In this document: piece by piece, positions 39,240-53,548 of the stretch
How positions within the stretch are numbered: position 1 is the stretch's first letter
Layout: the number at the start of each line of letters is the position of its first letter
Position numbers and translations under genes: made by a program
Notes under the pieces: generated by a model
Seen by the model: the letters and a program-made list of their open reading frames with translations, nothing else
Told to the model about the DNA's origin: nothing
The model's database searches: none
From: Paenibacillus lemnae
GTDB taxonomy: Bacteria > Bacillota > Bacilli > Paenibacillales > Paenibacillaceae
NCBI RefSeq assembly: GCF_012933385.1
Contig: NZ_JABBPN010000003.1
Coordinates: 62,001 to 126,000 of the forward strand
Length of the DNA: 64,000 nucleotides
Direction of reading: 5' to 3'

Positions 39240-42128
39240 TTATTGGGTCAAATACCTATAAAGCTTGCTCTCCACAGATTGCTCCAGTACTAGATTCATA
39301 TGCACAACGGAAATCGATTTGCTGTTACGATCGAGCATAGACCCTTGGACGGCGCTTTGAGGATCGGGATGAGCTTTGCCTAAATAATAGAATTCCGTTC
39401 CTTCCGCATCGTCTTTTTTGATGAATACATGCAGGTCGATTCCCCGCTCATCTGCCTCAAGGATTGTTCTGACTTCTTCCGATTCCAGAGTTCGTCTGCT
39501 TCTTGTCGACCATTTCAAAACCTCTGGAGAAATAAATTCCTCCTGATAGTTCGTGCTTGCTTCAACCCCTTCATGCTTGTGATAGGTGACAAAGATCGGG
39601 CAGGTCTGATACTTTGTCTTGTACCCATACATGGTGGAGCTTTCATCACTCAGCCAATTGAGCAGCTTACAGGAATCCTTCCGGGAATATTTTTTATAGA
39701 GCGTAAGGTGTTCATGGCAATCATACTGCTCCGTGAGATGTGAAGCGGTTTGGATGATGTCGGCAAGCATTTCCCTAAAGTATGAATTGTTCTGCATGGA
39801 CTGCAACAACATCGGATGAAATAGAAACCGCTGCGCTTCCGTGAATACGACGACAGGAGTGTCACCATATTTCTTCCTTGTCGGCTCCGTGAAAAAGGAC
39901 ATGTCCAGCACACGTTTCACGGAATCCAGTGTTTGCGAATCCACAGAGCATCCATGCTCAGCAAGAGCGTGGACCCATTCCTGGGCTGTAACACTACACT
40001 CTGTTAGTAACTTGCTCAGCAGAACAATCTCATGCCTGCGTTTGCCACTCAGCACTTCCGCCGACAGCATTACCAAATACTTTTTCTCTTGCTCGGATAG
40101 TGGCGGGACAGGCTCTTTAATCTTCTGCAAAAAATGATAATAGCTCCCGTGCTCATCTGAGAAAATCAGCGGATCGATCGAGCCGTGCTCCAAGAAATCC
40201 AGATGCGTAGGGATGCGGTTTAAACGGTTTTTGAGCTGAATATATTCTTCTCTCAGGATCTTCAGCGCGGTTAAGTTACTATTGCTGATCGATTGAAAGA
40301 TCTGTTTCTTGGCAACTTCCTCGAAATTAATCGTCGAAACCCCATTGATAAAGCTGGTGTCCTTCATATGACGGCGGATATTATCCTTGTTCTGCGACTT
40401 ATCTCCAGAAAGCGCGATCGGGATCAGGTAGTTATTCTTATAATTCCCAATAAAATCGATGATGGTCACGAATTCCTTGCCACCGTGTTTACGTAGTCCG
40501 CGCCCAAGCTGCTGTACAAATACGATGCTAGATTGAGTCTGGCGCAGCATGACCACCTGATTAATGCACGGAATATCGATACCTTCATTAAAAATATCCA
40601 CGGTCAGGATGTAGTCCAGCTGCCCATTTTCCAAATCTGTCACACAGCGAGCACGTTCCTCCTGGCGGTTATCCCCCGTTAAAGCTATCGTGCGGTAACC
40701 CCTCAAATTCAGCAGCTTAGATAGCTCGAGCGCTTCTTCTTTCCGGCTGCAAAAGATAAGACCTTTTACCGTCTCTCCGGAATAACCGTAATACTCAATC
40801 TTTTCTATTAGATAGGCTACTCGTTCATCTGAAACGAGCTGAGAGAGCATCACGGTATCGTCGGTCACTTGGCCATTATACTCGAAATCCGTCACTCCAA
40901 AATAATGAAATGGACACAGCATATCCTCTTCCAGCGCCTCTTGCAGACGAATTTCATAAGCAACGTTGTAGTCAAACAACTCATAGATGTTAAAGTCATC
41001 CGTCCGCTCCGGCGTAGCAGTCATCCCGAGCAGAAATTTAGGTTGAAAATAATGAAGGATGTTAAGATACGAGCTGGCCCCGGCCTTGTGCACTTCGTCT
41101 ATTAAAATGTAATCAAACGCTTCAGGATCGAAGCTGTTTAGATTGGAGGCTTTTGATATCGTCTGGACAGTAGCAAACAAATATTTGGCATCCGTCTCTC
41201 TACTGCTCCCAGATAAAATGCCATAGTCTCGATCTTCACCACCCAGGATCCGCTGGTAATCGAGCATGGCTTTTTGCAAAATTTGCTCCCGGTGAACGAC
41301 AAACAGCATTCGTTTAGGGGCAAAGTTTCTGACGTCAAATGCTGACAAGTACGTCTTGCCTGTACCTGTTGCCGAAATCACGAGCCCTTTGTGTGCTCCG
41401 GTGGCACGCAGATCCTGAAGGTTCCTCAGGGCGTTCATCTGCATGGCGTTCGGCACAATAGGGCTGAACACCGTCTGCGGAATGCCTTCTGGAGCGAGTG
41501 GAAACACCTGGCTCACATCTTGAGTGGCTTTTGTAACCTCTTCATATAAAATCTGATATGCATCAATCCACTGGCTGGACAAAGGGACGGATTCATCCCA
41601 GACCTTATTGAATTCACTTTGAAACTGCCCCAGGAGACCGCCATGCTTAAAAGAGGTTAGCTTCACGTTCCATTCATAATTGGCTTTTAAGGCAGAGGCT
41701 GTCAGATTGGAGCTTCCTGTAATAATGGTGGAATAACCTTCATGGTGAAAAAGGTAGCCCTTCGCATGAAATCCACTTAGATCTGATAATCGAACCTCTA
41801 CGTTGGTGATCTTCAGCAGCTCTTTATAGATTTTTGGCTGGTTAAAGTTAAGATAGTTGGAGGTCAGGATTTTACCTGTAACACCGCGCATTTTCAGGTC
41901 GAGTAAATGAGACTTCAGTGTGGCTAGTCCACTTTCTGTGATAAAGGCAACAGAGAACACGAAGGACTGACAGTGATCCAGCTCTTCTAGTAGTGGAGTC
42001 AGGACATAATCCTTGCTCTCTTTGTTGTTCACCAGCAGCTTTGGTTTATATTTGTCTACCGACTCCTGTTGATGATTAATGAACGCCCAGCTTAGAGAAT
42101 GATTGAACTGTTGGGTGGAGGTATCCAT
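39240..42128 (-). CDS. PLD-like nuclease/SF2 helicase fusion with DUF3427-type C-terminus
   Basis: 962 residues. N-terminal phospholipase-D-like domain with one HxK motif (His121-Lys123 in FHAKGYLF, then GSSNLT). An SF2 helicase core follows: Walker A ATGTGKT (Lys258), motif II DEVH (Asp344), LGMTATPER, and motif VI QQLGRGLRKH. The last ~300 residues match my memory of DUF3427, ending FYYLGKAHPD...LVLEQSVESKLYRYL. It begins immediately after the Nudix stop, so the pair is one operon. Proteins of this layout occur in phage-defence islands and act on DNA or RNA. A single HxK implies dimerisation to form the PLD site. A defence role is inferred. Confidence 0.88.
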   Translation of the reverse strand: MDTSTQQFNHSLSWAFINHQQESVDKYKPKLLVNNKESKDYVLTPLLEELDHCQSFVFSVAFITESGLATLKSHLLDLKMRGVTGKILTSNYLNFNQPKIYKELLKITNVEVRLSDLSGFHAKGYLFHHEGYSTIITGSSNLTASALKANYEWNVKLTSFKHGGLLGQFQSEFNKVWDESVPLSSQWIDAYQILYEEVTKATQDVSQVFPLAPEGIPQTVFSPIVPNAMQMNALRNLQDLRATGAHKGLVISATGTGKTYLSAFDVRNFAPKRMLFVVHREQILQKAMLDYQRILGGEDRDYGILSGSSRETDAKYLFATVQTISKASNLNSFDPEAFDYILIDEVHKAGASSYLNILHYFQPKFLLGMTATPERTDDFNIYELFDYNVAYEIRLQEALEEDMLCPFHYFGVTDFEYNGQVTDDTVMLSQLVSDERVAYLIEKIEYYGYSGETVKGLIFCSRKEEALELSKLLNLRGYRTIALTGDNRQEERARCVTDLENGQLDYILTVDIFNEGIDIPCINQVVMLRQTQSSIVFVQQLGRGLRKHGGKEFVTIIDFIGNYKNNYLIPIALSGDKSQNKDNIRRHMKDTSFINGVSTINFEEVAKKQIFQSISNSNLTALKILREEYIQLKNRLNRIPTHLDFLEHGSIDPLIFSDEHGSYYHFLQKIKEPVPPLSEQEKKYLVMLSAEVLSGKRRHEIVLLSKLLTECSVTAQEWVHALAEHGCSVDSQTLDSVKRVLDMSFFTEPTRKKYGDTPVVVFTEAQRFLFHPMLLQSMQNNSYFREMLADIIQTASHLTEQYDCHEHLTLYKKYSRKDSCKLLNWLSDESSTMYGYKTKYQTCPIFVTYHKHEGVEASTNYQEEFISPEVLKWSTRSRRTLESEEVRTILEADERGIDLHVFIKKDDAEGTEFYYLGKAHPDPQSAVQGSMLDRNSKSISVVHMNLVLEQSVESKLYRYLTQ

Positions 42129-42527
42129 TTATTTGATCAAGTCCTTTTGAATGCTGTGTACGGCAGGGATATCTGCAGGTGCCCAATCCAGGGACATGAG
42201 TTCATCGGGGGATAGCCAGGCAATTTCTACGTGTTCTGTGAGCACAGGCTTTCCGCTTAGAAGGTGGCAATAAAAAGTAGACAAATGCACAATACCAAAA
42301 TCATATTCATACACGGTCGTTTCGATATGCTCACCGATCTCGATGCTGCAGTGCATCTCTTCGTCAATCTCGCGCTTCAATGCACCCTGAGGCGTTTCGC
42401 CTTCCTCAATCTTGCCGCCGGGAAATTCCCATTTGTATGCTAAAGCTTTTGTAGCCCCGCGCTGGGCACAGAGAATCTTTCCGTTTTCGATGATGACAGC
42501 TCCGACGACGTGGATATTCTTTTTCAA
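42129..42527 (-). CDS. Nudix (MutT-like) nucleoside triphosphate pyrophosphohydrolase
   Basis: 132 residues. A full Nudix box GKIEEGETPQGALKREIDEEM is visible at about residues 37-57 (metal-binding REIDEE), with the usual Gly after EE replaced by His. MutT-like proteins of this size hydrolyse (deoxy)NTPs, often oxidised or modified ones. GGAGGG lies upstream of the start. It is translationally contiguous with the helicase downstream, so it may clear or supply a nucleotide for that system rather than act as general housekeeping MutT (inference). Confidence 0.92.
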   Translation of the reverse strand: MKKNIHVVGAVIIENGKILCAQRGATKALAYKWEFPGGKIEEGETPQGALKREIDEEMHCSIEIGEHIETTVYEYDFGIVHLSTFYCHLLSGKPVLTEHVEIAWLSPDELMSLDWAPADIPAVHSIQKDLIK

Positions 42528-42701
42528 TTCATTTCCCTCCGGTCTTGCATTCTGGTAAATGTATGTAGCTTTTAGTCTATTCTATTATATTTATCGGTAT
42601 TGGGGCCATCTCTCGTGATTGAATATATTGGAATATATGAGGGTGGTATACCTATTCCCGGTTAATAGTAGATATGGTAAACGCTTAAGGAGTAGGTGAA
42701 A

Positions 42702-42953
42702 ATGAATAAACAATTAAAAGATTTCCTTAGTGACTTAATTATACTCATTCAGGAGAAGTATAATGATACGTTGGATGTACCTGCAGATGAAAGTGATAAA
42801 GATAAATCTTACAGATTGGGTTTGAACTTTGCTTATTACGATGTGTTAGATCTAGTAGAGTCTCAATTATTATTACAAGGCCTTGCTTCTAACTCTCTCA
42901 AGAAAATTTCGCCAACACTAGGTGAAAAAATTCAAGCAGAGTCTGGACTCTGA
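42702..42953 (+). CDS. Small hypothetical protein
   Basis: About 83 residues; AAGGAG precedes ATG 42702 (GTG 42696 is a possible alternative). Mainly helical with an acidic centre; no family recognised. It is transcribed divergently from the Nudix/helicase pair, and a small membrane protein gene starts 21 bases after it. Codon use is AT-richer than the carbohydrate locus. Confidence 0.6.
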   Translation: MNKQLKDFLSDLIILIQEKYNDTLDVPADESDKDKSYRLGLNFAYYDVLDLVESQLLLQGLASNSLKKISPTLGEKIQAESGL

Positions 42954-42973
42954 TCGTTAAAAAGGAGGAGCCT

Positions 42974-43201
42974 ATGATCAAAATATTGTTAGGTATCACG
43001 TCCATAATCTCATCCGTTATCGTCCTATGTACAGGATTTATTGTTTCAGCATTGAGATCTGTTCATTATTCGTCAGGTACAAACCTTGGAGCCTTTGAGT
43101 ACAGTCTGTTTAATCTTAGTTTTATGTGGATTTTAATACCCATTTTGCTATTTATCCTGGGAGTATTTCTGCTCTACTCAAGCGCCAAAGATGCCGGTTA
43201 A
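42974..43201 (+). CDS. Small membrane protein, two predicted helices
   Basis: 75 residues with a strong AAAGGAGG ribosome site. Hydrophobic helices at about residues 4-28 and 48-68 are separated by a polar loop. No family recognised. It lies between the small hypothetical gene and the MazG-like gene, on the same strand as both. Confidence 0.6.
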   Translation: MIKILLGITSIISSVIVLCTGFIVSALRSVHYSSGTNLGAFEYSLFNLSFMWILIPILLFILGVFLLYSSAKDAG

Positions 43202-43249
43202 CATGCTACAATACAATTACACAACCAACCAGCAAAGGATGAATAACCC

Positions 43250-43579
43250 ATGCCAGTATACAATAAGCTTGTCCGGGATCTGATCCCGGAGATTATACAT
43301 AAGAGCGGCAAGGAATGCCGGACACGGATTTTGGATGAAGAAGAGTACCAGAAAGAGCTGAACGTGAAGCTGAAGGAAGAATCGGAGGAGTATTTTGCCG
43401 CATCGAAGTCGGAGGAAGCTTTAGAAGAGCTGGCAGATATGCTTGAGGTGATACGGTCACTGGCTGCTGTACATGGTTCAAGCTGGGAGCAGCTTGAAGC
43501 GTTGAGAGACCAAAAGGCGCAGGCACGCGGCGGGTTTAAGGATAAGGTGTATCTCATCGATGTCGACGACAACGCTTAA
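43250..43579 (+). CDS. MazG-like/PRA-PH nucleotide pyrophosphohydrolase
   Basis: 109 residues. The start MPVYNKLVRDLIPEII and the following EELADMLEVIRSL helix carry the acidic residues expected for the all-alpha NTP pyrophosphatase (MazG/phosphoribosyl-ATP pyrophosphohydrolase-like) fold. Such stand-alone proteins remove pyrophosphate from nucleotides. No histidine-biosynthesis gene is nearby, so a HisE role is unlikely. Its last 20 bases overlap the helicase gene that follows, so the two are translationally coupled. This mirrors the Nudix/helicase pair on the other strand. Confidence 0.85.
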   Translation: MPVYNKLVRDLIPEIIHKSGKECRTRILDEEEYQKELNVKLKEESEEYFAASKSEEALEELADMLEVIRSLAAVHGSSWEQLEALRDQKAQARGGFKDKVYLIDVDDNA

Positions 43580-46001
43580 TGTTAAGCTGATTACAGAGAA
43601 CCTAGCGGACGAGCTGATTATTGGCATGCAGCATGCTTCTGGCATTTATATTATGACTTCGTTTGTAATGCAGTCGGGTGTGCGTTTACTGGCTCCTCAT
43701 TTGAAAAAAGCCATCGATCGCGGTGCCGAGGTCAAAATGCTGGCGGGTGACTACTTGTATGTGACACAGCCTGAAGGCCTGCAGGCCCTGCGCGACATCG
43801 ACAGCCAGCTGGAGGCCAGGCTGTGGCGGAGTATGGGAACCTCGTTCCATCCCAAAGCCTATCTTTTTGATTATGACAAAGGAGAAGGTCTGCTCATCGT
43901 GGGCTCTTCGAACTTCTCGATGTCGGCCATGCGGATGGGGATGGAGTGGAACCTGGCGATGAATGCAAAGGCCGAGCCGTACACTTTTCAGGTCGCTTTG
44001 GATAAGTTCATGCAGAACTTTTATCACGACTCCACCCTGCCGCTGAACGACCATACAATCTCTCTATATGAGGAAGAGTACCGGGCTTACCACCGGGAGA
44101 ATCCGGAACTTATCCGCAGAATTACCGAGATGGAAGAAGAGGAGTATCGTTCGGAGAGTGTTGGCAGCTCTGATGCTGCGATTATTCCGGATGTCGAGCA
44201 GGTACTGATTCAGCCCCGATTTGCCCAGCTGGATGCTTTAGATGCATTGGAGCGTACTCTGGAAGAGGAATACGATAAAGCGATGGTGGTCATGGCGACA
44301 GGCTTGGGCAAAACCTACCTCGCTGGCTTTTTCGCTCAGCGGTTTCAGCGTGTACTGTTCGTAGCGCATCGGGAGGAGATTTTGCTCCAGGCGAAGCGGT
44401 CTTTTCATCAGATTATGCCGGACAAAACCTTAGGTATCTATAACGGGCAGCTGAAAGAAGGAGACGCGGATTGTGTATTTGCTTCTATTTATACACTGGG
44501 CATGAAGAAGCATCGCGAGGGATTTGCTCAGAAGCATTTTGACCTGATTGTGGTGGATGAATTTCATCATGCGGCTGCCAGCTCGTATCAATCGGTGATT
44601 CAATATTTTGAACCGAGGTTTCTGCTTGGCATTACAGCAACGCCGGACCGTATGGACGGCAAGGATGTGTATGCTCTTTGTGATGGAAACGTGGCGTACC
44701 AGATCCATTTTATTGAAGCGATTCGGCGCGGCTGGCTGTCTCCTTTTCAATATTACGGCATCTATGATGATACCGATTATTCCTCCATCCGCTGGATGGG
44801 ATCGCACTATGATGACGAACAGCTGACGGCTGCCCAGTTAAGAGGGAGTCTAGCGGACAAAATTTACGAGTCCTGGATCGGTCATAAGCAGACAAGAACG
44901 ATTGGTTTTTGTTCATCGATCCGGCAGGCGGATTATTTAGCAGGGTATTTTCAGGACAAGGGCATACCCGCCGTCAGTCTGCATTCCGGAACGGTCGGCA
45001 TGACCAGAGGGGAAGCAATCCAGCGTCTTGCCGGTGGAGAGCTTGAAATTATTTTTACAGTGGATTTGTTCAATGAAGGCGTGGATATTCCGAGTGTGGA
45101 TACGCTGCTGTTCGTGCGTCCGACTGAATCGTTAACGGTGTTTACCCAGCAGGTGGGCCGGGGCCTCAGGTTGTATGAGCAGAAGACACACTGCACCATT
45201 ATCGACCTGATCGGCAACTACAGGAATGCAGATGTGAAGCTGCGGCTGTTCGCAAATGACGAGGAGTTGAAAGGAACGGCCAAGGACAAGGTGATTCCTT
45301 CTGTGCCTGCCGGATGCGAGATCCAGCTGGAGACCGGGGTCATCAACCTGCTGGATGAATTAAGCCGCAAAAAGCTGCCTCACCGCGAACGTCTACACCG
45401 CTCTTTTCTGGATCTTCAAGCGGAGCTTGGGCGGATCCCGACCTATCTGGAGCTTCACCTCTACGGCCGCGCCAACAGCTGGGAGTATCGGAATGAATTC
45501 GGTTCCTATGCGGGCTTTCTTCTATGGGCGGAGTGCCTGAGTGAGCAGGAAGAAGAAGTTTATTGGCGGCATGAGAACTGGCTGCGTGATGTAGAGAAGA
45601 CGGCCATGAACAAAAGCTACAAGATGATCGTTCTTCTGTACATGCTGGAGCGCGGACCGAAGCAGTGGGCAGAGCCTGTGACTTCTCTGGAAGTCGCGCC
45701 ATTCTTCCATAAGTACCTGACCGAGAAAGAGTACCGCAAACGGATTGATTTCTCGGATAACGATGCGAAGAAGCTGTGGAATTACGATGAGGTTAAGGTC
45801 AGCAAGCTGATTGAGAGAATGCCCATGACCAAGTGGAGCTCAGCTAAAGGCAGCATGACTGGCTTTGAGGATGGCGTGTTTAGCCTGGATGTTGAACCTG
45901 CTGCGGAGGATCTAGAAGTGCTGCACAGCTGGACGCAGGAGGTATGCCTGTACCGGCTGCACTATCATTTTGAGCGTAAGGAACAGAGAGTGGTGCAGTA
46001 G
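43560..46001 (+). CDS. PLD-like nuclease/SF2 helicase fusion (shorter paralogue)
   Basis: 813 residues. N-terminal PLD-like domain with His97-Lys99 in FHPKAYLF and downstream GSSNFS. SF2 helicase core: ATGLGKT, DEFHH as motif II, LGITATPDR, NEGVDIPS, and QQVGRGLR. The C-terminal ~230 residues are helical and charged and do not end like the minus-strand protein. Its start lies inside the MazG-like gene. Likely acts on nucleic acid with the pyrophosphohydrolase, probably against invading DNA (inference). The overall similarity to the minus-strand fusion suggests an old duplication or two related systems gathered in one island. Confidence 0.88.
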   Translation: MSTTTLNVKLITENLADELIIGMQHASGIYIMTSFVMQSGVRLLAPHLKKAIDRGAEVKMLAGDYLYVTQPEGLQALRDIDSQLEARLWRSMGTSFHPKAYLFDYDKGEGLLIVGSSNFSMSAMRMGMEWNLAMNAKAEPYTFQVALDKFMQNFYHDSTLPLNDHTISLYEEEYRAYHRENPELIRRITEMEEEEYRSESVGSSDAAIIPDVEQVLIQPRFAQLDALDALERTLEEEYDKAMVVMATGLGKTYLAGFFAQRFQRVLFVAHREEILLQAKRSFHQIMPDKTLGIYNGQLKEGDADCVFASIYTLGMKKHREGFAQKHFDLIVVDEFHHAAASSYQSVIQYFEPRFLLGITATPDRMDGKDVYALCDGNVAYQIHFIEAIRRGWLSPFQYYGIYDDTDYSSIRWMGSHYDDEQLTAAQLRGSLADKIYESWIGHKQTRTIGFCSSIRQADYLAGYFQDKGIPAVSLHSGTVGMTRGEAIQRLAGGELEIIFTVDLFNEGVDIPSVDTLLFVRPTESLTVFTQQVGRGLRLYEQKTHCTIIDLIGNYRNADVKLRLFANDEELKGTAKDKVIPSVPAGCEIQLETGVINLLDELSRKKLPHRERLHRSFLDLQAELGRIPTYLELHLYGRANSWEYRNEFGSYAGFLLWAECLSEQEEEVYWRHENWLRDVEKTAMNKSYKMIVLLYMLERGPKQWAEPVTSLEVAPFFHKYLTEKEYRKRIDFSDNDAKKLWNYDEVKVSKLIERMPMTKWSSAKGSMTGFEDGVFSLDVEPAAEDLEVLHSWTQEVCLYRLHYHFERKEQRVVQ

Positions 46002-46174: not shown

Positions 46175-47377
46175 ATGAGTGATATGGACGAGCTTTACCA
46201 TAAAATCAATCGTTTTGTTACAAATAATGATTTATTGGAGCTTTTGAATTCTCGGATCAATGAGTTCAATCCTTTTAAAGTGATGAAGGTGGATCAATTT
46301 GAGATTCGACATTCAAACATACTGGCATGGCTGTTAAATCCAAGAGAGAATCACTTCTTAAGCGATTTGGTACTAAAGAAAGTAACTGCTGAAGTAATAT
46401 GCAGAGACATTGATATTAAAAACCACGACTTGAAGGTATCGGATATATTATTAGGCAGCTTCCATATTCTTGTCTTTTCAAGGAGCAATGATTTTATCCT
46501 TCTTATTGAAAATAAAGTGCACGCCGGTTTAGAAAGCCATCAGCTAGAGAAGTACATCCAATTAGTTAAGGATCATTATCCAGGGGTCCAGCACATTATT
46601 CCTGTATTCCTAACTTTAAACGGAGAAGAAGCCCCGCACTCGGAATATTTTAGCCTTGCACACTTGGATATTCTTAGCATTTTAAAATCCATTCTGACCT
46701 TAAATAAAGAAAATATGAATAGTAAAATCCATAATTTTATTAGTTACTATACCAAGACTCTGGAGGTACTCACTTTGCAGGATGAACAGCTAATAAAGCT
46801 ATGCCGCGATATTTATAAACATCATAGAGAAGCGATAGAAACAATCATTAAATATGGGGTTACTTCCACTTCGACCCTCAACCAGGCAGCCGAGGTCTTG
46901 AAATCGGAGTTGAATGACATTGGGCATGGGGAAAATCCTGATTTCTTTTTAAGCGATAAAGAATACTGGTTTATGCCTAATATGATCGATCAACAGCTGC
47001 CTCGTTTACTTAAGAAATGGAAATCACCAAGACCCATAAGCTATTTCTTTGCTGCTGAAGAGAAAAAGCTGCGACTTATCCTTGAAGTAGGACCCATCAC
47101 GGATGGTCATACCAGATTGAAATTATTAAATTATATCAATGATAATGACCCGGATCATTTATTATCCATAAAGTCAAATGCTCTGAAAAAGCTGAATGGA
47201 AGTTTTACTAGAATTCGTGCTAAAAGTGTCGACATTAGTGATTGGACGGATGCGGACCTTGTGGTTGAACGCATGAATTATTTATTAGAAAAAGGATTTA
47301 AGTATAACGAAGTAAACCATTATCTAGGTACTCTTCTACAGCAATTCAGCCTTGGTAACTCCAGCGACACGATCTGA
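46175..47377 (+). CDS. PD-(D/E)XK nuclease-family protein
   Basis: 400 residues; AAGGAG lies before ATG 46175. The N-terminal region carries FEIRHSNILAWLLNP, typical of the PDDEXK_4 family I recall, then FILLIENKVHAG with Glu112-Asn113-Lys114 as the E-x-K half of the active site. The preceding Asp could not be fixed with certainty. The C-terminal 200 residues are of unknown fold. Members are annotated as restriction-like nucleases, often solitary in defence islands. It has its own terminator-bounded unit between the helicase and dynamin operons. Base composition is AT-rich. Confidence 0.8.
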   Translation: MSDMDELYHKINRFVTNNDLLELLNSRINEFNPFKVMKVDQFEIRHSNILAWLLNPRENHFLSDLVLKKVTAEVICRDIDIKNHDLKVSDILLGSFHILVFSRSNDFILLIENKVHAGLESHQLEKYIQLVKDHYPGVQHIIPVFLTLNGEEAPHSEYFSLAHLDILSILKSILTLNKENMNSKIHNFISYYTKTLEVLTLQDEQLIKLCRDIYKHHREAIETIIKYGVTSTSTLNQAAEVLKSELNDIGHGENPDFFLSDKEYWFMPNMIDQQLPRLLKKWKSPRPISYFFAAEEKKLRLILEVGPITDGHTRLKLLNYINDNDPDHLLSIKSNALKKLNGSFTRIRAKSVDISDWTDADLVVERMNYLLEKGFKYNEVNHYLGTLLQQFSLGNSSDTI

Positions 47378-47851
47378 TAGCTCTATATACTCAGGCCTCC
47401 TCCTAAAGAATGGTGGGCTTTTTTGTTGTTCTGAACAGATGCTGCTCTTGAGTTATTCCCTTAAATGGTGTTGTCTTCGGGGTTAGTGTATACTGTCTTG
47501 CTGGCTTTACATAGGAATGACGCGGTAAAGACTGATGAGCTATTTGACCGATAAATAGGAAATAGGAGACATGTTAATGAAAAATATAGATCCAGTTGGT
47601 TCTTGAGGAGGAGTTCGGAAGTCATTGTTGAATGGATATATATATTGAAAGCGGTTGTCGATTAACAGATGTCTTTATCTTATTCGAACGAATAGGATCT
47701 TTCTAAGAAGAGACATCTTGATCGGAACGTACATTCGATGACAAGGTTTGCTACATAGACAGTCTATAATGATTAAGTAATCATGCATTTCATTGAGGCT
47801 GATTACCGCTTTGCTCTTAACTTACTTTAAATGGATGCAGGAGGTTTTTTC
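47378..47851 (+). promoter_or_regulatory. 474-base upstream region of the dynamin operon with a nested inverted repeat
   Basis: No ORF with a ribosome site. A weak G+C stem and T-run after the nuclease gene (47390-47425) may terminate it. At 47667-47718 an outer AGATGTCT/AGACATCT 8-bp repeat encloses CTTA/TAAG and a central TATTCG-AA-CGAATA palindrome, giving a cruciform-like dyad about 130 bases before the dynamin start. This could be a binding site for a regulator. A cre-like TGAAAGCGGTTGTC at 47646-47659 has several mismatches and was not accepted. Confidence 0.35.
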
Positions 47852-50254
47852 ATGTTTAAAGATACGGTCAGCGCGGTCAGGGATGAAGTCATCAGGCTTT
47901 TATCTCAGCAGCGCAATATAATAAGTGATCTTCTGGAATCGGAAGACATGGTTATGGAGAGAGACGAGCAGCAAGAACGTTCTCTTGACCGGCCCTTGGC
48001 TGAAATGTGGAATGCAGCGTTAGCAGAAGAGCTGACGAAGGTTCATGATTTGGAGATGACGCTTGCCGTTGTAGGAACAATGAAGGCAGGAAAGTCGACG
48101 ACAATTAATGCGATCGTTGGCCGGGAGGTGCTGCCGAACCGGAATAGACCGATGACCACGTTACCCACAATGATCAGGCATCAGCCGGGACAGGAAACAC
48201 CGGTTTTACGTTTTCCCAAGCCGCAACCATTCAATCAGGCTATACGGGAAATCAGATCAGCGCTGCGTGACATGGATGAGGAAGCATTGTCGAGCCTCCC
48301 GGTCAATGCTTCGGATGATGGCAGAACATTAGTTCAGGATATCTTGAGCGGTCATATCCATGAGCTGGATTCAGCCTATCATGGGACCGAGGGTATTTAT
48401 GATTTCCTGAAGACGCTTAATGATATTTCAAGATTGTGCGACTCCAAGAATCTGGATCTTCCTTCTCCTCTTACCGAATATACATCCTTACTGGAGCTGC
48501 CCGTCATTGATGTAGAGTTCTTTCATTTAAAGCATAGAAAGCAGCAAACCAACGGGAGACTGACCCTTATTGATACACCGGGCCCCAATGAGGCAGGACA
48601 GGTGCATTTAAGAGGAATTCTGCAAGAACAGTTACATAAAGCATCAGCCATCCTGGCTGTCCTTGACTATACTCAGCTTAATTCAGAGGCAGACTTTGAG
48701 GTGCGTATGGCGATCGAGGAGGTAGCGAAGTATTCCCGGGAGCGGCTGTTTGTGTTGATCAACAAATTTGATCAAAAAGACCGGAATTCCATGGGGGCGG
48801 ATGAAGTTCGCCGTTATGTAAGTAAGGAACTTTTTGAAGACCGGCTGCCTCAAGAGCATATCTTTCCTGTTTCCAGCCAGTTGGGGTATCTGGCGAATTA
48901 TGCACTTCGTGAGATCGCAGAGAGAGGGTGCTTGCCATCTCCTGATCAAGCGGAGTGGATTGAGGATTTTGGAGATCGAGCTCTGGGTTCCTTCTGGCAA
49001 GAAGATATCGATGATATCCCCCGGGTAAACAAGAGTGCAGAGCGATTGTGGCAGAAAAGTGATTTTGAAGAGCCGTTGGACCGTGTAATTGGCAAAGCCT
49101 ATGAAGAAGCTGCTCTCATTGTCATTCAATCGGCACTTGAGAAAATGAACATGTACGATGAAGAAATCCTTCAATATCTGAAGATGAGAAGAGGAAGCAT
49201 CCATATCGACATCGACTCTTTAAAGCAAATCATCACAGAGTTGGAGCATAATATTCAATTAATCCAGGATGTTCAGGAGAAAGCCGAGGCATTATCGGAT
49301 TCTGCTCAGAAAGAACTATCTGGAACATTTGATCTGGTGTTTAATCAGGGAAATGAGACTCTAAAGAGATTGATTGACAGTCTGTTTAGACATGGAAAAA
49401 GATTGGAAAGTGAACGGGCTAAACTGGAGAGGAAGAATAATAAAAAGAATAAAGGTTACATGTCGGATATTATATCCTTGTTTAAACCTGCCCAAAAAGC
49501 CTCCATCCCTATAAACGAAAGCGGATTAAACGTATTCTCGAACAAACAAGATGCGCTTGAGTTTCTTAATAAGATTCAATCGGCACTTGTCCAGGACTCC
49601 TCCCAGATTTTCAAGCAAATTCAATCTGAAGTAAATCGGTTCGTTGAATCGATGGAGTATAAGCTCCAAAGTGAGATTAGGGACAAAATGGAACCGGTGC
49701 TGGAGCGAGCGGCCAGTAAGTTGAATGACACCTTTCATCTCAAAATCTCTTTCAAGCAGCATGCCATTAAACCGATTCAAATCAACTTCGAATCTCTTCG
49801 TGAAGACTCTATCAATGTGAAGAATGTTGAGAAGAAAAAAACGAGATATGTTAGAAAGTGGTACACTCTCTGGTTAAGAGAGCATACCGAATCCTACACA
49901 GTTCACGAGGATGAGTACCACATCGATACGAAGCGAATGGGTGCTGCAGTGCTTGAAAATTTAAAAGCTTCGCAGAAGAAGCTTCAACAAGATTTGGATA
50001 TTTATATGAATCAGGAACTCTCCAACAATCTGGCTGATTACTTCAATCATCTTACATCCTATCTGGACAAGTTCCTCGGCAATCTTATGGATGGTATCCA
50101 TGATAAGCAGAAAAGCGAGGAGTCTTTGGGAAAGCTTCTGTCGGCTATGGAGAGCCTCATCTCGGTAGTCGAATTGCACCAACAGGATATTGAGCCGATA
50201 ATGAACGAGATCTTGTCGGGCAATCCTGTAGGAAAGGAAGTCAGTTTAGTCTAA
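47852..50254 (+). CDS. Dynamin-like GTPase (RdcA/CrfC-like)
   Basis: 800 residues; AGGAGG precedes ATG 47852 by about 8 bases (an earlier ATG at 47831 has no such site). G domain: P-loop GTMKAGKST at Gly75-Thr83, G2 Thr region at TTLPT, DTPG in LTLIDTPGPNEAG, and NKFD as G4. The remainder is a long helical stalk rich in Lys/Glu with a Lys-rich patch (ERKNNKKNK) that could contact membrane or nucleic acid. Bacterial dynamins remodel or protect membranes; E. coli RdcA/CrfC is encoded beside RdcB. It overlaps the next gene by one base and is first of a three-gene operon. Confidence 0.9.
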   Translation: MFKDTVSAVRDEVIRLLSQQRNIISDLLESEDMVMERDEQQERSLDRPLAEMWNAALAEELTKVHDLEMTLAVVGTMKAGKSTTINAIVGREVLPNRNRPMTTLPTMIRHQPGQETPVLRFPKPQPFNQAIREIRSALRDMDEEALSSLPVNASDDGRTLVQDILSGHIHELDSAYHGTEGIYDFLKTLNDISRLCDSKNLDLPSPLTEYTSLLELPVIDVEFFHLKHRKQQTNGRLTLIDTPGPNEAGQVHLRGILQEQLHKASAILAVLDYTQLNSEADFEVRMAIEEVAKYSRERLFVLINKFDQKDRNSMGADEVRRYVSKELFEDRLPQEHIFPVSSQLGYLANYALREIAERGCLPSPDQAEWIEDFGDRALGSFWQEDIDDIPRVNKSAERLWQKSDFEEPLDRVIGKAYEEAALIVIQSALEKMNMYDEEILQYLKMRRGSIHIDIDSLKQIITELEHNIQLIQDVQEKAEALSDSAQKELSGTFDLVFNQGNETLKRLIDSLFRHGKRLESERAKLERKNNKKNKGYMSDIISLFKPAQKASIPINESGLNVFSNKQDALEFLNKIQSALVQDSSQIFKQIQSEVNRFVESMEYKLQSEIRDKMEPVLERAASKLNDTFHLKISFKQHAIKPIQINFESLREDSINVKNVEKKKTRYVRKWYTLWLREHTESYTVHEDEYHIDTKRMGAAVLENLKASQKKLQQDLDIYMNQELSNNLADYFNHLTSYLDKFLGNLMDGIHDKQKSEESLGKLLSAMESLISVVELHQQDIEPIMNEILSGNPVGKEVSLV

Positions 50255-51234
50255 TGAGCATACATGAACGTGAGTACAACGCTGAAGAACAAGAGATACG
50301 CCGCCTGGTGCAGTCCATTCCCATTTTGCAGGATAAAATGATAGTAGATCTGGTCAATGGAATCCAGGTTACACAAGATCATATTCGCGTCAGCCAAGAT
50401 CGCATTACAGGGCTCGGATCAAGAATTGTCGATGCCGTAACCGGTAAATCGGCGCTGCGGCAGCAGCGAATTGATCAGAACTTGAACGAAGGGCTGCGAA
50501 GCACCATGATCTGGCTGGAGAATCTGCAGGCCAGTCAAATTCAGACCGATCGGGCTTTAGCTTATGTGACAGAGAAATTATCAGAAACCCGGCAGGGAAT
50601 CATGAAGCTGGTGGACAAGCATGTTGCTTTAAAAAACGAGGTGCGGCAGTTAACTGAACAAATGCATGGATTAGAGGAACAATTTACTCAGCAGTCGGAA
50701 CAAATTCGTAACCAGCTCACCTCTATAGATATGAGACAAAGTGCGTTAATTCAAATGAATCAGGAGTTTGATAAATGGGCGGGCGGAGGATACGCTTCAT
50801 TTTCACCACTGCTTCAAATGTTTCTGGTATTAGAAGCTTTGAGCTGGGGACCTTTTGGTGTGTATGATGCGGTTAACCCGGAATTCAGGGAACAGTTAAA
50901 TTATAAGTGTGCCGTTCTTTTGAAAGACGTAAGAGGAATTCCCATGCGCAACTTACCTACGGACAAGTGGATGCTGTCGCTGGTGAAAGAGAGGGCAGCG
51001 CATAAGGAAATGCTCAGATTTCTACTTCAAGATGATGCTGAACTTTTGGCTAGCTTGCCATTGCAGAGTACGATGCTGAAAGTAGTAGACTTGGAAGAGC
51101 ATAGTGCTGAGTCTATGAGATCTATACTGACCCAGGTCAACGTCCCACTCGTGTTTGAATCCAAAAGGCTGAGCCAAAGATTACTTATGGAATCACGCAT
51201 TCGGCTGCATAGGAGGGGACTCCATGCATCTTGA
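50254..51234 (+). CDS. Coiled-coil protein, RdcB-like partner of the dynamin GTPase
   Basis: 326 residues. The first ~170 are largely helical with heptad-like spacing (QTDRALAYVTEKLSETRQGI onward), followed by a globular segment rich in aromatic residues (FSPLLQMFLVLEALSWGPFG). The N-terminal pattern and the position behind a dynamin-like gene fit the RdcB family (diguanylate cyclase regulator in E. coli), but this is from memory and is tentative. Its ATG overlaps the GTPase stop, and its end overlaps the patatin gene by 11 bases. It probably bridges the GTPase and the lipase (inference). Confidence 0.65.
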   Translation: MSIHEREYNAEEQEIRRLVQSIPILQDKMIVDLVNGIQVTQDHIRVSQDRITGLGSRIVDAVTGKSALRQQRIDQNLNEGLRSTMIWLENLQASQIQTDRALAYVTEKLSETRQGIMKLVDKHVALKNEVRQLTEQMHGLEEQFTQQSEQIRNQLTSIDMRQSALIQMNQEFDKWAGGGYASFSPLLQMFLVLEALSWGPFGVYDAVNPEFREQLNYKCAVLLKDVRGIPMRNLPTDKWMLSLVKERAAHKEMLRFLLQDDAELLASLPLQSTMLKVVDLEEHSAESMRSILTQVNVPLVFESKRLSQRLLMESRIRLHRRGLHAS

Positions 51235-52324
51235 TTTTCCGGTATTCGGCCTGGTGTTCTCCGGCGGCGGCGCCCGGGGAGCATATGAGATCGGAGTCGC
51301 TCAATACCTGGCCTCCCAGAACTGGGTGCCATCCGCTTATGCTGGAGCCAGCATCGGGGCGTTAAATGCGGTGTTTCTAGCTGGGGCTCCGTCATTTCAG
51401 GAAGGTGTCCATCGGCTTGAAGAAGTTTGGAGAACACTGAAAATTCAAGACATTGTGAAGATGAATCATCAAATGGTAGTTTTGGGTTTGGTCCATGCTG
51501 CAGTCAAAAGAGGCATCGTACTTCATCCGGGATTAGCTGTATATGACGAAGCCTTCAACCTGCTGGCTTCAAAAATCAAGGTGATGAAGGATGTCAAAAA
51601 TATAAGCCAGCTCATCACGGAGCATCCCCTTCTTTCTAAACTGCAGCAAGGGCTGTTAGATAACCAGTTCTTACGAAGATTATTAGAGGAGCAGCTGGGT
51701 ATCCATGATATGGAGAATGCATCACCTATTTGGGTATCGGCATATCCGAGTAAGGGAATGACAAGAGATATTGTAGATTACTTACTCGCAGGATCCGGTA
51801 TTCGGGATACAAATGAATCGCACTATCTGCAATTGAATGAGATTCGTAAAGAAGAACGACTGTCAGCTATTCTGGCTAGTGCAGCCATTCCGGGAGTGTA
51901 CAGCCGGCAAACTGTGAATGGGCAGCCTTATGTTGACGGGGGAGTAGGAGGAGCTGTGCATTCGAGAGGTAATACACCTTTAACTCCATTAGTATTAGCC
52001 GGATATACCCATTGTGTGGTCGTGAACTTATCAGATGGATCCATGTTTAACAGGCATGAGTTTAAGAATACGACGATTATTGAAGTTCGGCCTGAGCAAA
52101 CATTACATCGGAATGGTCTTCTCCCAAGTCTGTTTGACTTTAGGCCGGAACGAATTCAGTCTTTAATAAGTCAGGGTTACGCGGATGCAAAGAGATGTAT
52201 TGGAGAGTCATTGACAGCTTTGTCATTAGTGCGTGGGGGGAGGGCGGCTGCGCAGTTAAAAGAAGACCGTCTCCTCGAACTAAAGAATGACGGTTTTGAT
52301 GATGCAATGAAATTATTGGACTAG
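51224..52324 (+). CDS. Patatin-like phospholipase
   Basis: 366 residues. Oxyanion-hole motif SGGGARGAYEIG near the N-terminus, catalytic Ser43 in GASIG, and Asp238 in YVDGG complete the Ser-Asp dyad of patatin/RssA-like lipases. Length and arrangement are standard. No signal peptide or membrane helix. Patatin lipases are effectors in several abortive-infection systems, where they degrade membrane phospholipid. It overlaps the RdcB-like gene, so production is coupled to the dynamin. A defence or membrane-stress role is inferred. Confidence 0.92.
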   Translation: MHLDFPVFGLVFSGGGARGAYEIGVAQYLASQNWVPSAYAGASIGALNAVFLAGAPSFQEGVHRLEEVWRTLKIQDIVKMNHQMVVLGLVHAAVKRGIVLHPGLAVYDEAFNLLASKIKVMKDVKNISQLITEHPLLSKLQQGLLDNQFLRRLLEEQLGIHDMENASPIWVSAYPSKGMTRDIVDYLLAGSGIRDTNESHYLQLNEIRKEERLSAILASAAIPGVYSRQTVNGQPYVDGGVGGAVHSRGNTPLTPLVLAGYTHCVVVNLSDGSMFNRHEFKNTTIIEVRPEQTLHRNGLLPSLFDFRPERIQSLISQGYADAKRCIGESLTALSLVRGGRAAAQLKEDRLLELKNDGFDDAMKLLD

Positions 52325-52722: not shown

Positions 52723-53548
52723 GGGCGTGTCTTCAAACTACAGGGTTGATTTGATCTGGTAAAATAAAGGTATGAGACAACGATACGAATTAGGTGACGA
52801 CCAGTGGGATAAGATGAAAGACTTGCTGCCTGCGGAGCGGAAAGCTCAGGGTGGCCGGCCGGCCAAAGACAATCGAACCATGATCAATGCCATGCTGTGG
52901 ATTGCTCGAAGCGGAGCGCCATGGCGTGATTTACCGGAATATTACGGACCTTGGAAGTCAGTCTATACTCGATTCCGACGCTGGGAGAAAGCAGGTGTAT
53001 TTCATCAAGTCTTAGAGTGCCTAGCATCGGAACCCGATTTGGAAAGCTTAATGATTGATGCCTCGATCGTCCGTGTACATCAGCATGGTGCTGGCGCAAA
53101 AGGGGGCCAGACAAGCAAGTAATCGGGCGATCCCGAGGAGGCATAACTACGAAAATTCATACGGTAGTGGATGCGTTAGGGTGCCCTCTGCGCATCGTTC
53201 TTTCTCCTGGAAACACACACGACAGTGTGATCGGGTATGAGATGCTGCGGGATCTGGATTTAACCGATAAGCAAGTCATCGCAGATCGAGGATATGATTC
53301 TAATCGCATTCTCGATCTACTGAAGGAACAGCAAGCTACATCGGTTATTCCACCCAAGAAGAACCGTGTAAAGCAGCGAAAATGCGACTGGTGGCTGTAC
53401 AAAGAACCTCACTTAGTCGAATGCTTTGTTAATAAACTGAAGTACCGTCGCTTGGCCACTCGCTATGAGAAGCTGGCCTGTACGTTTGCGGCATTTTTAT
53501 CCTTGGCATCTAGCTTAGTTTGGCTTGCTTAGGTTTGAAGACACGCCC
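52723..53548 (+). mobile_element. Complete IS5-family (IS427-like) insertion sequence
   Basis: An 826-bp element with matching ends GGGCGTGTCTTCAAAC (left) and its reverse complement (right), flanked by TA duplications (52721-52722 and 53549-53550). The sequence across the site without the element is GAATC-TA-GGATG, and the paralogous block at 56047-56058 still shows this empty site (TTCATC-TA-GGACG). The insertion therefore happened after the toxin block had been duplicated. Confidence 0.93.
52772..53532 (+). CDS. IS5-family transposase, two overlapping frames joined by -1 frameshift
   Basis: DDE transposase in two parts. The first frame (52772-53122) holds the helix-turn-helix region and first catalytic Asp in LMIDASIVRVHQ. 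The second (about 53098-53532, -1 frame) holds the second Asp in VIADRGYDS and the Glu in HLVECFVNKLKYRR. The slip site is AAAAGGGGG at 53098-53106, typical of IS427-like elements, so the enzyme is likely made by programmed frameshifting and the element may be active. The joined length of about 253 residues is normal. Confidence 0.88.

What the first reader, a model, noticed from the sequence alone, without database searches (positions are those of the whole stretch)
39240..46001. Two back-to-back loci each coupling a nucleotide pyrophosphohydrolase to a PLD/SF2-helicase fusion
Nudix plus a 962-residue fusion on the minus strand, MazG-like plus an 813-residue fusion on the plus strand. Two unrelated pyrophosphohydrolase folds are paired with the same kind of effector, both translationally coupled. 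This suggests nucleotide hydrolysis is a functional part of the system, for example removing a modified or signalling nucleotide.
Basis: partly seen in the sequence, partly recalled or inferred. Interest (0 to 1): 0.65.

Follow-up and report, generated by a model that had tools for sequence, protein, structure and literature searches.

The report
Restriction enzymes with nucleotide-enzyme partners
Two neighbouring DNA-shredding defence enzymes each sit next to a small enzyme predicted to break down nucleotides, and the same kind of pairing recurs across many bacteria, which suggests that these defences act on DNA building blocks as well as on finished DNA.

Summary
A Nudix protein (candidate family PDC-S07) abuts a homologue of SauUSI, the Type IV enzyme that cuts 5mC/5hmC DNA; a MazG-like protein overlaps a second PLD/SF2 enzyme that lacks SauUSI's reader domain. 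Both pairings are enriched. A Nudix adjoins 72 of 84 SauUSI-type loci (57 of 69 without 15 borderline ones), in three arrangements that changed about seven times. MazG lies directly upstream of 52 of 54 close relatives of the second enzyme; distant ones have MazG, HIT or small methyltransferase genes. Within 700 bp of 60 control restriction genes none of these four families was found. Post hoc, enzymes with Asn at the proposed cytosine-contacting position lack the Nudix in 8 of 9 loci, against 4 of 75 otherwise (few evolutionary events). Best reading: the partner hydrolyses modified dNTPs of the kind its enzyme reads in DNA; Orf135 (Nudix) and DCTPP1 (MazG fold) are known 5-methyl-dCTP hydrolases. 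The activity is inferred, not shown.

The parts
39240..42128 (-). SauUSI-type PLD-SF2-DUF3427 restriction enzyme, 962 aa
   Evidence: Pfam; PADLOC mREase_IV PDLC03658 E 8.3e-303; PDB 7clg E 9.5e-290; 49% identical to the SauUSI of S. aureus contig L369
42129..42527 (-). Nudix partner (PDC-S07 family), 132 aa, TTG start, abuts the restriction gene
   Evidence: Pfam NUDIX E 1e-17; PADLOC PDC-S07 E 9.9e-57; best NCBIfam model PRK10546 (NudG) 105 bits, under its cut-off of 156; PDB 5x1x E 2.2e-42; Nudix box present
42696..42953 (+). 85-aa ORF between the two pairs, no family match; link to the system unknown
   Evidence: a counterpart in the closest relative L075
42975..43202 (+). small ORF, about 75 aa, hydrophobic by eye, between the pairs; link unknown
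   Evidence: read from the sequence; counterpart in L075
43250..43579 (+). MazG-like NTP pyrophosphohydrolase partner, 109 aa
   Evidence: EExxE...ExxD-type motif; AlphaFold model mean pLDDT 88.7; top Foldseek hits PRA-PH/MazG, weak E-values
43560..46001 (+). second PLD-SF2 fusion, 813 aa, without DUF3427; C-terminus predicted mostly helical, perhaps two HTH-type modules
   Evidence: Pfam; alignment A1; AlphaFold C-terminal model and fold searches

Best explanation
These are two PLD-nuclease/SF2-translocase restriction loci, each with a small enzyme that works on nucleotides. The minus-strand enzyme most likely reads a modified cytosine in DNA through its C-terminal SRA domain, translocates and shreds the DNA, as SauUSI does. 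Its Nudix partner most likely hydrolyses 5-substituted dCTP (5-methyl- or 5-hydroxymethyl-dCTP) to the monophosphate. One locus would then act at two levels: modified DNA is cut, and the precursor that would put that modification into DNA is removed. The gain could be starving a phage of its modified precursor, or keeping the mark out of the host's own DNA so that the host is not cut; the data do not separate these. MazG would do the same for the second enzyme and whatever it reads. Shown: gene architecture, enrichment, repeated rearrangement, more than one recruitment of partners, conserved catalytic motifs, and a post hoc tie between a reader residue and Nudix presence. Inferred: the substrate, the direction of benefit, and modification-dependence of both window enzymes.
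For: Nudix next to 72 of 84 SauUSI-type loci in three arrangements, with about 7 changes of arrangement on the tree; 57 of 69 if 15 loci intermediate between SauUSI-type and the third class are left out. MazG directly upstream of 52 of 54 close relatives of the second enzyme. A partner within 700 bp of 55 of 82 PLD-SF2 genes in a survey of 398 Bacillota genomes, against 0 of 60 HsdR/GmrSD/McrB-like genes (54 of which have 700 bp on both sides); 65 proximal hits in 115 kb against 6 distal in 390 kb. The only families found beside six or more of these loci were MazG/HIT, Nudix and a small methyltransferase. More than one Nudix recruitment by the third class. Reader link: residue 858 Asp 60 with/4 without Nudix, Glu 11/0, Asn 1/8; 2 of 3 Asn origins coincide with 2 of 4 Nudix losses. 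Asp-858 is proposed to contact the flipped cytosine (PMC7913695 section 25). Known chemistry: Orf135/NudG (Nudix) and RS21-C6/DCTPP1 are described as highly specific 5-methyl-dCTP hydrolases (PMC10742078 passage), DCTPP1 being MazG-like (PMC4491611 abstract in the listing); NudG values in PMC5158307 (passage). A L. plantarum plasmid flanks its SauUSI homologue with a Nudix and a DCTPP1-like MazG. The window's genome (91.9% complete) has no C5-cytosine methyltransferase hit.
Against: No activity was measured. The residue link is post hoc and rests on few events; one Asn enzyme (L414) keeps its Nudix, and four Asp loci in two lineages (L404, L415-417) lack one. Most third-class enzymes keep Asp-858 and Trp-868, yet 20 of 29 have no detected partner. 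HIT and methyltransferase partners are not dNTP pyrophosphohydrolases. Nudix-MazG pairs without any restriction gene in reach exist in the genus. The Nudix reaches neither the NudG (105 of 156 bits) nor the MutT (82 of 97.9 bits) cut-off and is relatively nearer to the latter; MutT itself has weak 5-methyl-dCTP activity (PMC3744803 passages), so family alone does not settle the substrate. The second enzyme shows no SRA domain, so nothing shows that it reads a modified base.
Confidence: 0.5

Rival explanations
1. General dNTP-pool house-cleaning hitchhikers: the small enzymes remove oxidised or otherwise damaged nucleotides (for example 8-oxo-dGTP) and merely travel with defence genes.
For: Nudix-MazG pairs without restriction genes in the same genus; MazG matches in 52 of 100 genus genomes, far more than have the fusion; MazG reading frames persist where the fusion is decayed; the Nudix is relatively near the MutT cut-off (82 of 97.9 bits).
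Against: 0 of 60 other restriction genes have such a neighbour within 700 bp; adjacency survives about 7 changes of arrangement; by PDB bit score the Nudix is nearer to NudG than to E. coli MutT (79 against 53 bits); more than one recruitment.
Confidence: 0.17
2. Abortive dNTP depletion: the partner destroys canonical dNTPs on infection, stopping phage replication, with the restriction enzyme acting as a trigger or second effector.
For: Both folds can hydrolyse canonical nucleotides; dNTP-depleting defences are known (both recalled).
Against: The window's partners are single-domain proteins of 132 and 109 aa with no sensor domain found; relatives stand alone in the same genus; the partner's presence follows the DNA reader pocket, which plain depletion would not predict.
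Confidence: 0.12
3. The partners process products or ends made by the PLD nuclease (for example nucleotidylated or adenylated ends), as HIT-fold aprataxin does (recalled).
For: HIT genes directly downstream of 12 of 29 distant second-type genes and a HIT-MazG fusion.
Against: Nudix and MazG act on free nucleotides in the families cited here; no HIT within 700 bp of 16 SauUSI-type genes, though one lies about 1.5 kb away in L372.
Confidence: 0.1
4. The partner degrades a nucleotide second messenger or an ADP-ribose-type signal that controls the nuclease.
For: Nudix and HIT proteins occur in some signalling defences (recalled; Nudix passage in PMC7159879); the HIT partner has a weak hit to ThsC2 (E 1.6e-11).
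Against: No further family, so no candidate synthetase, recurs beside more than 3 of these loci; SauUSI is reported to cut target DNA given ATP (PMC7913695 abstract).
Confidence: 0.06

Closest known systems
SauUSI (Staphylococcus aureus Type IV restriction enzyme, PDB 7clg)
   Same: Same domain order and length; 49% identity; PLD His/Lys present; Tyr-831, Phe-841 and Trp-868 of the proposed SRA pocket identical; directly preceded by a Nudix in an S. aureus contig too.
   Different: Glu-126 of the PLD motif is His, Asp-858 is Glu, Met-829 is Tyr, Ile-842 is Val in the window protein; specificity untested.
PADLOC candidate PDC-S07 (Nudix) and the Nudix-SauUSI adjacency
   Same: The window Nudix matches PDC-S07 (E 9.9e-57). 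Adjacency of MutT homologues to SauUSI homologues is noted in a Streptococcus figure legend (PMC7641849 passage); [quoted passage not shown] suis (PMC12813430 passage).
E. coli NudG/Orf135 and human DCTPP1 (5-methyl-dCTP hydrolases of the Nudix and MazG folds)
   Same: Same two folds as the two partners; NudG is among the closest solved structures (2rrk, E 3e-21); a DCTPP1-like gene adjoins a plasmid SauUSI homologue.
   Different: NCBIfam's NudG model scores 105 bits, under its cut-off of 156; the window's MazG has no PDB sequence match below E 0.6, so it is another MazG subfamily.
NgoAVII / CglI (PLD nuclease + SF2 ATPase, two subunits)
   Same: Same two catalytic domains (PMC7913695 section 24).
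   Different: Separate subunits with a B3 reader; here one polypeptide.

Membership tests
SauUSI-type Type IV enzyme (minus-strand fusion) | PLD nuclease HxK active site | tested here: met
   His-119 and Lys-121 of SauUSI conserved in the window protein
SauUSI-type Type IV enzyme (minus-strand fusion) | Glu at the HxKx4E position | tested here: not met
   His in the window; only 5 of 18 other type A rows have Glu, so it is not a constant feature of the group
SauUSI-type Type IV enzyme (minus-strand fusion) | SF2 ATPase plus DUF3427 (which covers the SRA reader) | tested here: met
   ResIII, Helicase_C, DUF3427 E 1.3e-84 over profile 1-280 of 280
SauUSI-type Type IV enzyme (minus-strand fusion) | cuts only DNA with 5mC/5hmC | not testable with these tools
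   needs purified protein
SauUSI-type Type IV enzyme (plus-strand fusion) | DUF3427/SRA reader | tested here: not met
   no DUF3427 match at E <= 0.01
SauUSI-type Type IV enzyme (plus-strand fusion) | SRA fold in the C-terminus | tested here: inconclusive
   model mostly helical, mean pLDDT 81; best Z 5.1 (Cdc6), then MukE and HTH regulators
PDC-S07 | match to the PADLOC model | tested here: met
   E 9.9e-57 over residues 1-128
Nudix hydrolase | Nudix box GX5EX7REUXEE | tested here: met
   36 of 36 partner entries, 35 different sequences, window included; the pattern is recalled
NudG equivalog | NCBIfam PRK10546 cut-off | tested here: not met
   105.3 bits against a cut-off of 156
MutT (8-oxo-dGTP) equivalog | NCBIfam TIGR00586 cut-off | tested here: not met
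   82.1 bits against a cut-off of 97.9
5-methyl-dCTP hydrolase | activity on 5-methyl-dCTP | not testable with these tools
   enzymology needed
MazG-type NTP pyrophosphohydrolase superfamily | EExxE...ExxD metal site | tested here: met
   79 of 79 entries (76 different sequences) with relaxed spacing; 68 of 79 with the stricter first pattern
MazG-type NTP pyrophosphohydrolase superfamily | MazG/PRA-PH fold | tested here: inconclusive
   the 8 top Foldseek hits are PRA-PH, MazG or HISN2, but at E 0.2-0.6; VIA Z 6.8 to PRA-PH 1yvw and 6.5 to iMazG 2q73, with unrelated helical proteins at similar Z

The most novel reading that the evidence does not exclude
PLD-SF2 restriction enzymes are one half of a two-level defence. 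The Nudix next to S. aureus SauUSI, already solved as 5X1X and named MutT, would be its 5-modified-dCTP hydrolase.
Probability: 0.35. Interest if true: 0.8.

Novelty: new variant of a known kind. Interest (0 to 1): 0.62.

Why it matters
SauUSI is described as a major barrier to gene transfer in S. aureus (title of PMC7913695). If its neighbour is a modified-dNTP hydrolase, this kind of Type IV restriction acts on the nucleotide pool as well as on DNA. That would explain how a cell carrying a modification-dependent nuclease keeps the mark out of its own DNA, or how it attacks phages that make modified precursors. It gives a directly testable substrate prediction for a family so far labelled PDC-S07 or MutT, and the partner could serve as a clue to what uncharacterised PLD-SF2 enzymes read.

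Tried and rejected
General link between MazG and Type IV restriction: in single genomes of the genus MazG lies beside GmrSD (L067), a McrB/McrC-like pair (L071) and a C5 methylase (L072), but 0 of 20 GmrSD and 0 of 13 McrB-like loci at phylum level have any of the four partner families within 700 bp, so I dropped the idea.

Antitoxin-like asymmetry (partner lost less often than nuclease): 11 of 54 loci scored as partner present/nuclease frame not intact, against 2 partner-less. Some of the 11 (L106, L107) have full-length frames and failed only my motif filter, and the nuclease gene is about 7 times longer, so I draw no conclusion.

SRA reader in the second enzyme: not listed in the fold searches of the AlphaFold model; that is no proof of absence.

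Pocket residue 831 (Tyr in 15 of 18 SauUSI-type, Val in 26 of 27 third-class proteins) does not predict the Nudix: many enzymes with Val, Ile or Leu there have one.

HIT fusion in Paracoccaceae plasmids (L373, L375, L376): suggestive by eye; Pfam HIT did not match at E <= 1; not claimed.

Limits: the detection HMMs were seeded from the loci studied, so other MazG or Nudix subfamilies may be missed in cases and controls alike (the DCTPP1-like MazG of L371 was missed that way). The 700-bp rule missed one overlapping MazG (L220, seen), so the close second-type group is really 8 of 8 rather than 7 of 8. Controls taken: 20 of 26 GmrSD matches, 13 genes covering the 14 McrB-like matches, 27 of the 31 best-scoring HsdR matches; 6 of the 60 have under 700 bp on one side or both. 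The split of the second type into close and distant (560 bits to the window protein) is mine. In the 84-locus set, 15 loci (L175 and L431-L444) score nearly alike to the SauUSI and third-class references, three of them slightly higher to the third class; all 15 have a Nudix. Without them the counts are 57 of 69, and by residue 858 Asp 45/4, Glu 11/0, Asn 1/8. The count of changes on the tree was made with them.
Full report
What is there. The four genes are confirmed. On the minus strand a 132-aa Nudix protein (42129-42527) ends in TAA directly against the ATG of a 962-aa protein (39240-42128). The latter has PLD, SF2 and full DUF3427 domains, matches PADLOC mREase_IV at E 8.3e-303 and the SauUSI crystal structure 7clg at E 9.5e-290, and is 49% identical to the SauUSI of an S. 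aureus contig. On the plus strand a 109-aa MazG-like protein (43250-43579) overlaps by 20 bp an 813-aa PLD-SF2 protein (43560-46001) that lacks DUF3427. Two small ORFs lie between the pairs. The Nudix matches PADLOC's PDC-S07 (E 9.9e-57). Among solved structures it is closer to NudG than to E. coli MutT (79 against 53 bits), but it reaches neither family's NCBIfam cut-off.

Same genus (Paenibacillus, inferred from contigs shared with named records). In 100 genomes, 18 have PLD-SF2 fusions at E <= 1e-60. A SauUSI-type enzyme occurs in 10 and the Nudix is directly upstream in all 10, two of which have broken restriction genes. The second type occurs in 7; MazG is directly upstream in 6 and the seventh is at a contig end. 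A third class of about 1050 aa, also with DUF3427, occurs full-length in 4 genomes, each time followed by a roughly 40% identical Nudix, once fused to a methyltransferase.

Named genomes. A pattern scan of the species-genome collection for the second enzyme gave 55 loci, 54 of them this enzyme (Paenibacillus, Cohnella, Saccharibacillus, Aquibacillus, one Bacillus). MazG is directly upstream in 52 of 54; L100 and L116 lack it.

Phylum. Of 398 Bacillota genomes, 72 have a PLD-SF2 fusion at E <= 1e-60. I took regions round these hits (78 regions) and found 82 PLD-SF2 genes. A partner within 700 bp is present at 13 of 16 SauUSI-type genes (Nudix), 7 of 8 close second-type genes (MazG; the eighth, L220, has an overlapping MazG that the rule missed), 26 of 29 distant second-type genes (MazG 15, HIT 12, methyltransferase 6, some with two; the three exceptions are truncated genes), and 9 of 29 third-class genes (Nudix 7). 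Of 230 neighbours clustered by similarity, the only families found beside six or more loci were MazG/HIT (joined by a HIT-MazG fusion, L191), Nudix and the methyltransferase; the remaining clusters cover 2 or 3 loci each. Density is 65 hits in about 115 kb next to these genes against 6 in 390 kb further away. The same search round 27 HsdR, 20 GmrSD and 13 McrB-like genes found none within 700 bp; 54 of these 60 have 700 bp on both sides.

Other phyla and mobile DNA. Plasmid hits (18 records; 14 of them opened) include Nudix-SauUSI in Latilactobacillus, Lactiplantibacillus and Hymenobacter (Bacteroidota), and a methyltransferase next to the fusion in Pseudoalteromonas and Aeromonas. In the other nine opened records the HMMs found none of the four partner families in the stretch taken. 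In the L. plantarum plasmid the SauUSI homologue is flanked by a Nudix and by a MazG whose PDB relatives include RS21-C6 and DCTPP1. In an S. aureus contig, SauUSI (953 aa) is directly preceded by a Nudix identical at 123 of 127 positions to PDB 5x1x, named 'Mutator mutT protein'. So the partner of the model enzyme already has a solved structure.

Partners keep their catalytic motifs and were recruited more than once. The Nudix box is present in 36 of 36 partner entries (35 different sequences) and the MazG metal motif in 79 of 79 entries (76 different sequences) with relaxed spacing, 68 of 79 with my first, stricter pattern. In a Nudix tree (midpoint root, weak deep support) most SauUSI partners group together, while third-class partners fall in several places, two of them inside a well-supported group with stand-alone Nudix proteins of the genus. 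Among SauUSI-type loci the Nudix is upstream in the same direction (32), downstream same (15) or downstream opposite (24), with about 7 changes on the tree.

Reader and partner. SauUSI's SRA pocket is described in PMC7913695 section 25: Tyr-831 for the methyl group, Asp-858 for the cytosine, Trp-868 for stacking. I noticed that the only two complete SauUSI-type loci of the phylum survey without a Nudix had Asn at 858, then widened the set. In 84 distinct loci: Asp 60 with and 4 without Nudix, Glu (the window's state) 11 and 0, Asn 1 and 8. Fifteen of these loci are borderline to the third class; without them the counts are Asp 45/4, Glu 11/0, Asn 1/8, and 57 of 69 have a Nudix in all. The tree shows 4 Nudix losses and 3 Asn origins, two of which coincide. 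This is post hoc, counts few events (seven of the nine Asn loci are one clade), and used a quick tree. It is what one expects if the partner's substrate carries the base the enzyme reads.

Mechanism. The best-supported reading is a nucleotide-level arm matched to the DNA-level arm. Orf135/NudG (Nudix) and RS21-C6/DCTPP1 (MazG-like) are described as highly specific 5-methyl-dCTP hydrolases (PMC10742078 passage; PMC4491611 abstract in a listing), and 5-methyl-dCTP heads the NudG entry in PMC5158307 (passage). Two unrelated folds that converged on that chemistry elsewhere are the folds found here. The window's genome shows no C5-cytosine methyltransferase, fitting a cell that must keep its DNA free of the mark. 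I cannot tell starving the phage from protecting the host. For the second enzyme the target is unknown: its C-terminus is predicted mostly helical with HTH-like matches of low Z, so modification-dependence is not shown.

Against. Third-class enzymes mostly lack a detected partner. HIT and methyltransferase partners do not fit simple dNTP pyrophosphohydrolysis. Stand-alone Nudix-MazG pairs exist. MutT itself has weak 5-methyl-dCTP activity (PMC3744803 passages). No activity was measured.

What was known. Passages seen: a Streptococcus figure legend noting MutT homologues adjacent to SauUSI homologues (PMC7641849); PDC-S07 and RM type IV co-localised within 20 genes in 23/23 cases in S. suis (PMC12813430). 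Subscription papers, and the original SauUSI paper, were not readable.

Noticed in passing
window 46175-47377 (+): PDDEXK_4 nuclease, PADLOC candidate PDC-S26 (E 2.1e-60), directly after the second pair: the island seems to continue.
   Followed up: no
window 47831-52324 (+): Dynamin-family GTPase resembling CrfC (E 1e-145 to the NCBIfam model, but 487 of 1146 cut-off bits), YjcZ-like protein and patatin phospholipase, the genes overlapping: possibly another defence operon.
   Followed up: no
L191 6791-7534: HIT and MazG fused in one 247-aa protein next to a PLD-SF2 gene (HIT by Pfam; MazG part by similarity).
   Followed up: partly
L063 5354-6406: Nudix fused to a SAM methyltransferase after a third-class PLD-SF2 gene; the methyltransferase hits the same PADLOC model (mad2) as the stand-alone partner elsewhere.
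   Followed up: partly
L067, L071, L072: MazG beside GmrSD, a McrB/McrC-like pair and a C5 DNA methylase with PDC-M33A/B in single genomes of the genus; no such neighbour in the phylum-level controls.
   Followed up: partly
L373, L375, L376 (Paracoccaceae plasmids): PLD-SF2-DUF3427 proteins with an extra N-terminal stretch holding CPxC-like and His-rich motifs reminiscent of HIT by eye; Pfam did not confirm.
   Followed up: partly
L374 3935-6886: PLD-SF2 protein with a Peptidase_S24-like C-terminal domain and an adjacent methyltransferase.
   Followed up: no
L122, L130, L173, L174: SauUSI-type and second-type enzymes lie in the same island in other genera too, each with its own partner, as in the window.
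   Followed up: no
L175, L431-L444: A group of about 1030-1115 aa enzymes between SauUSI-type and third class, with a third-class-like pocket (Glu-829, Val/Ile-831), all 15 with a Nudix (one of them one gene away), unlike the third class proper.
   Followed up: partly
L068, L069, L070: MazG genes followed by short remnants of the second PLD-SF2 gene, as if the nuclease was lost and MazG kept.
   Followed up: no
window 52772-53532: IS5-like transposase split over two frames near the end of the island (by eye; no family search).
   Followed up: no
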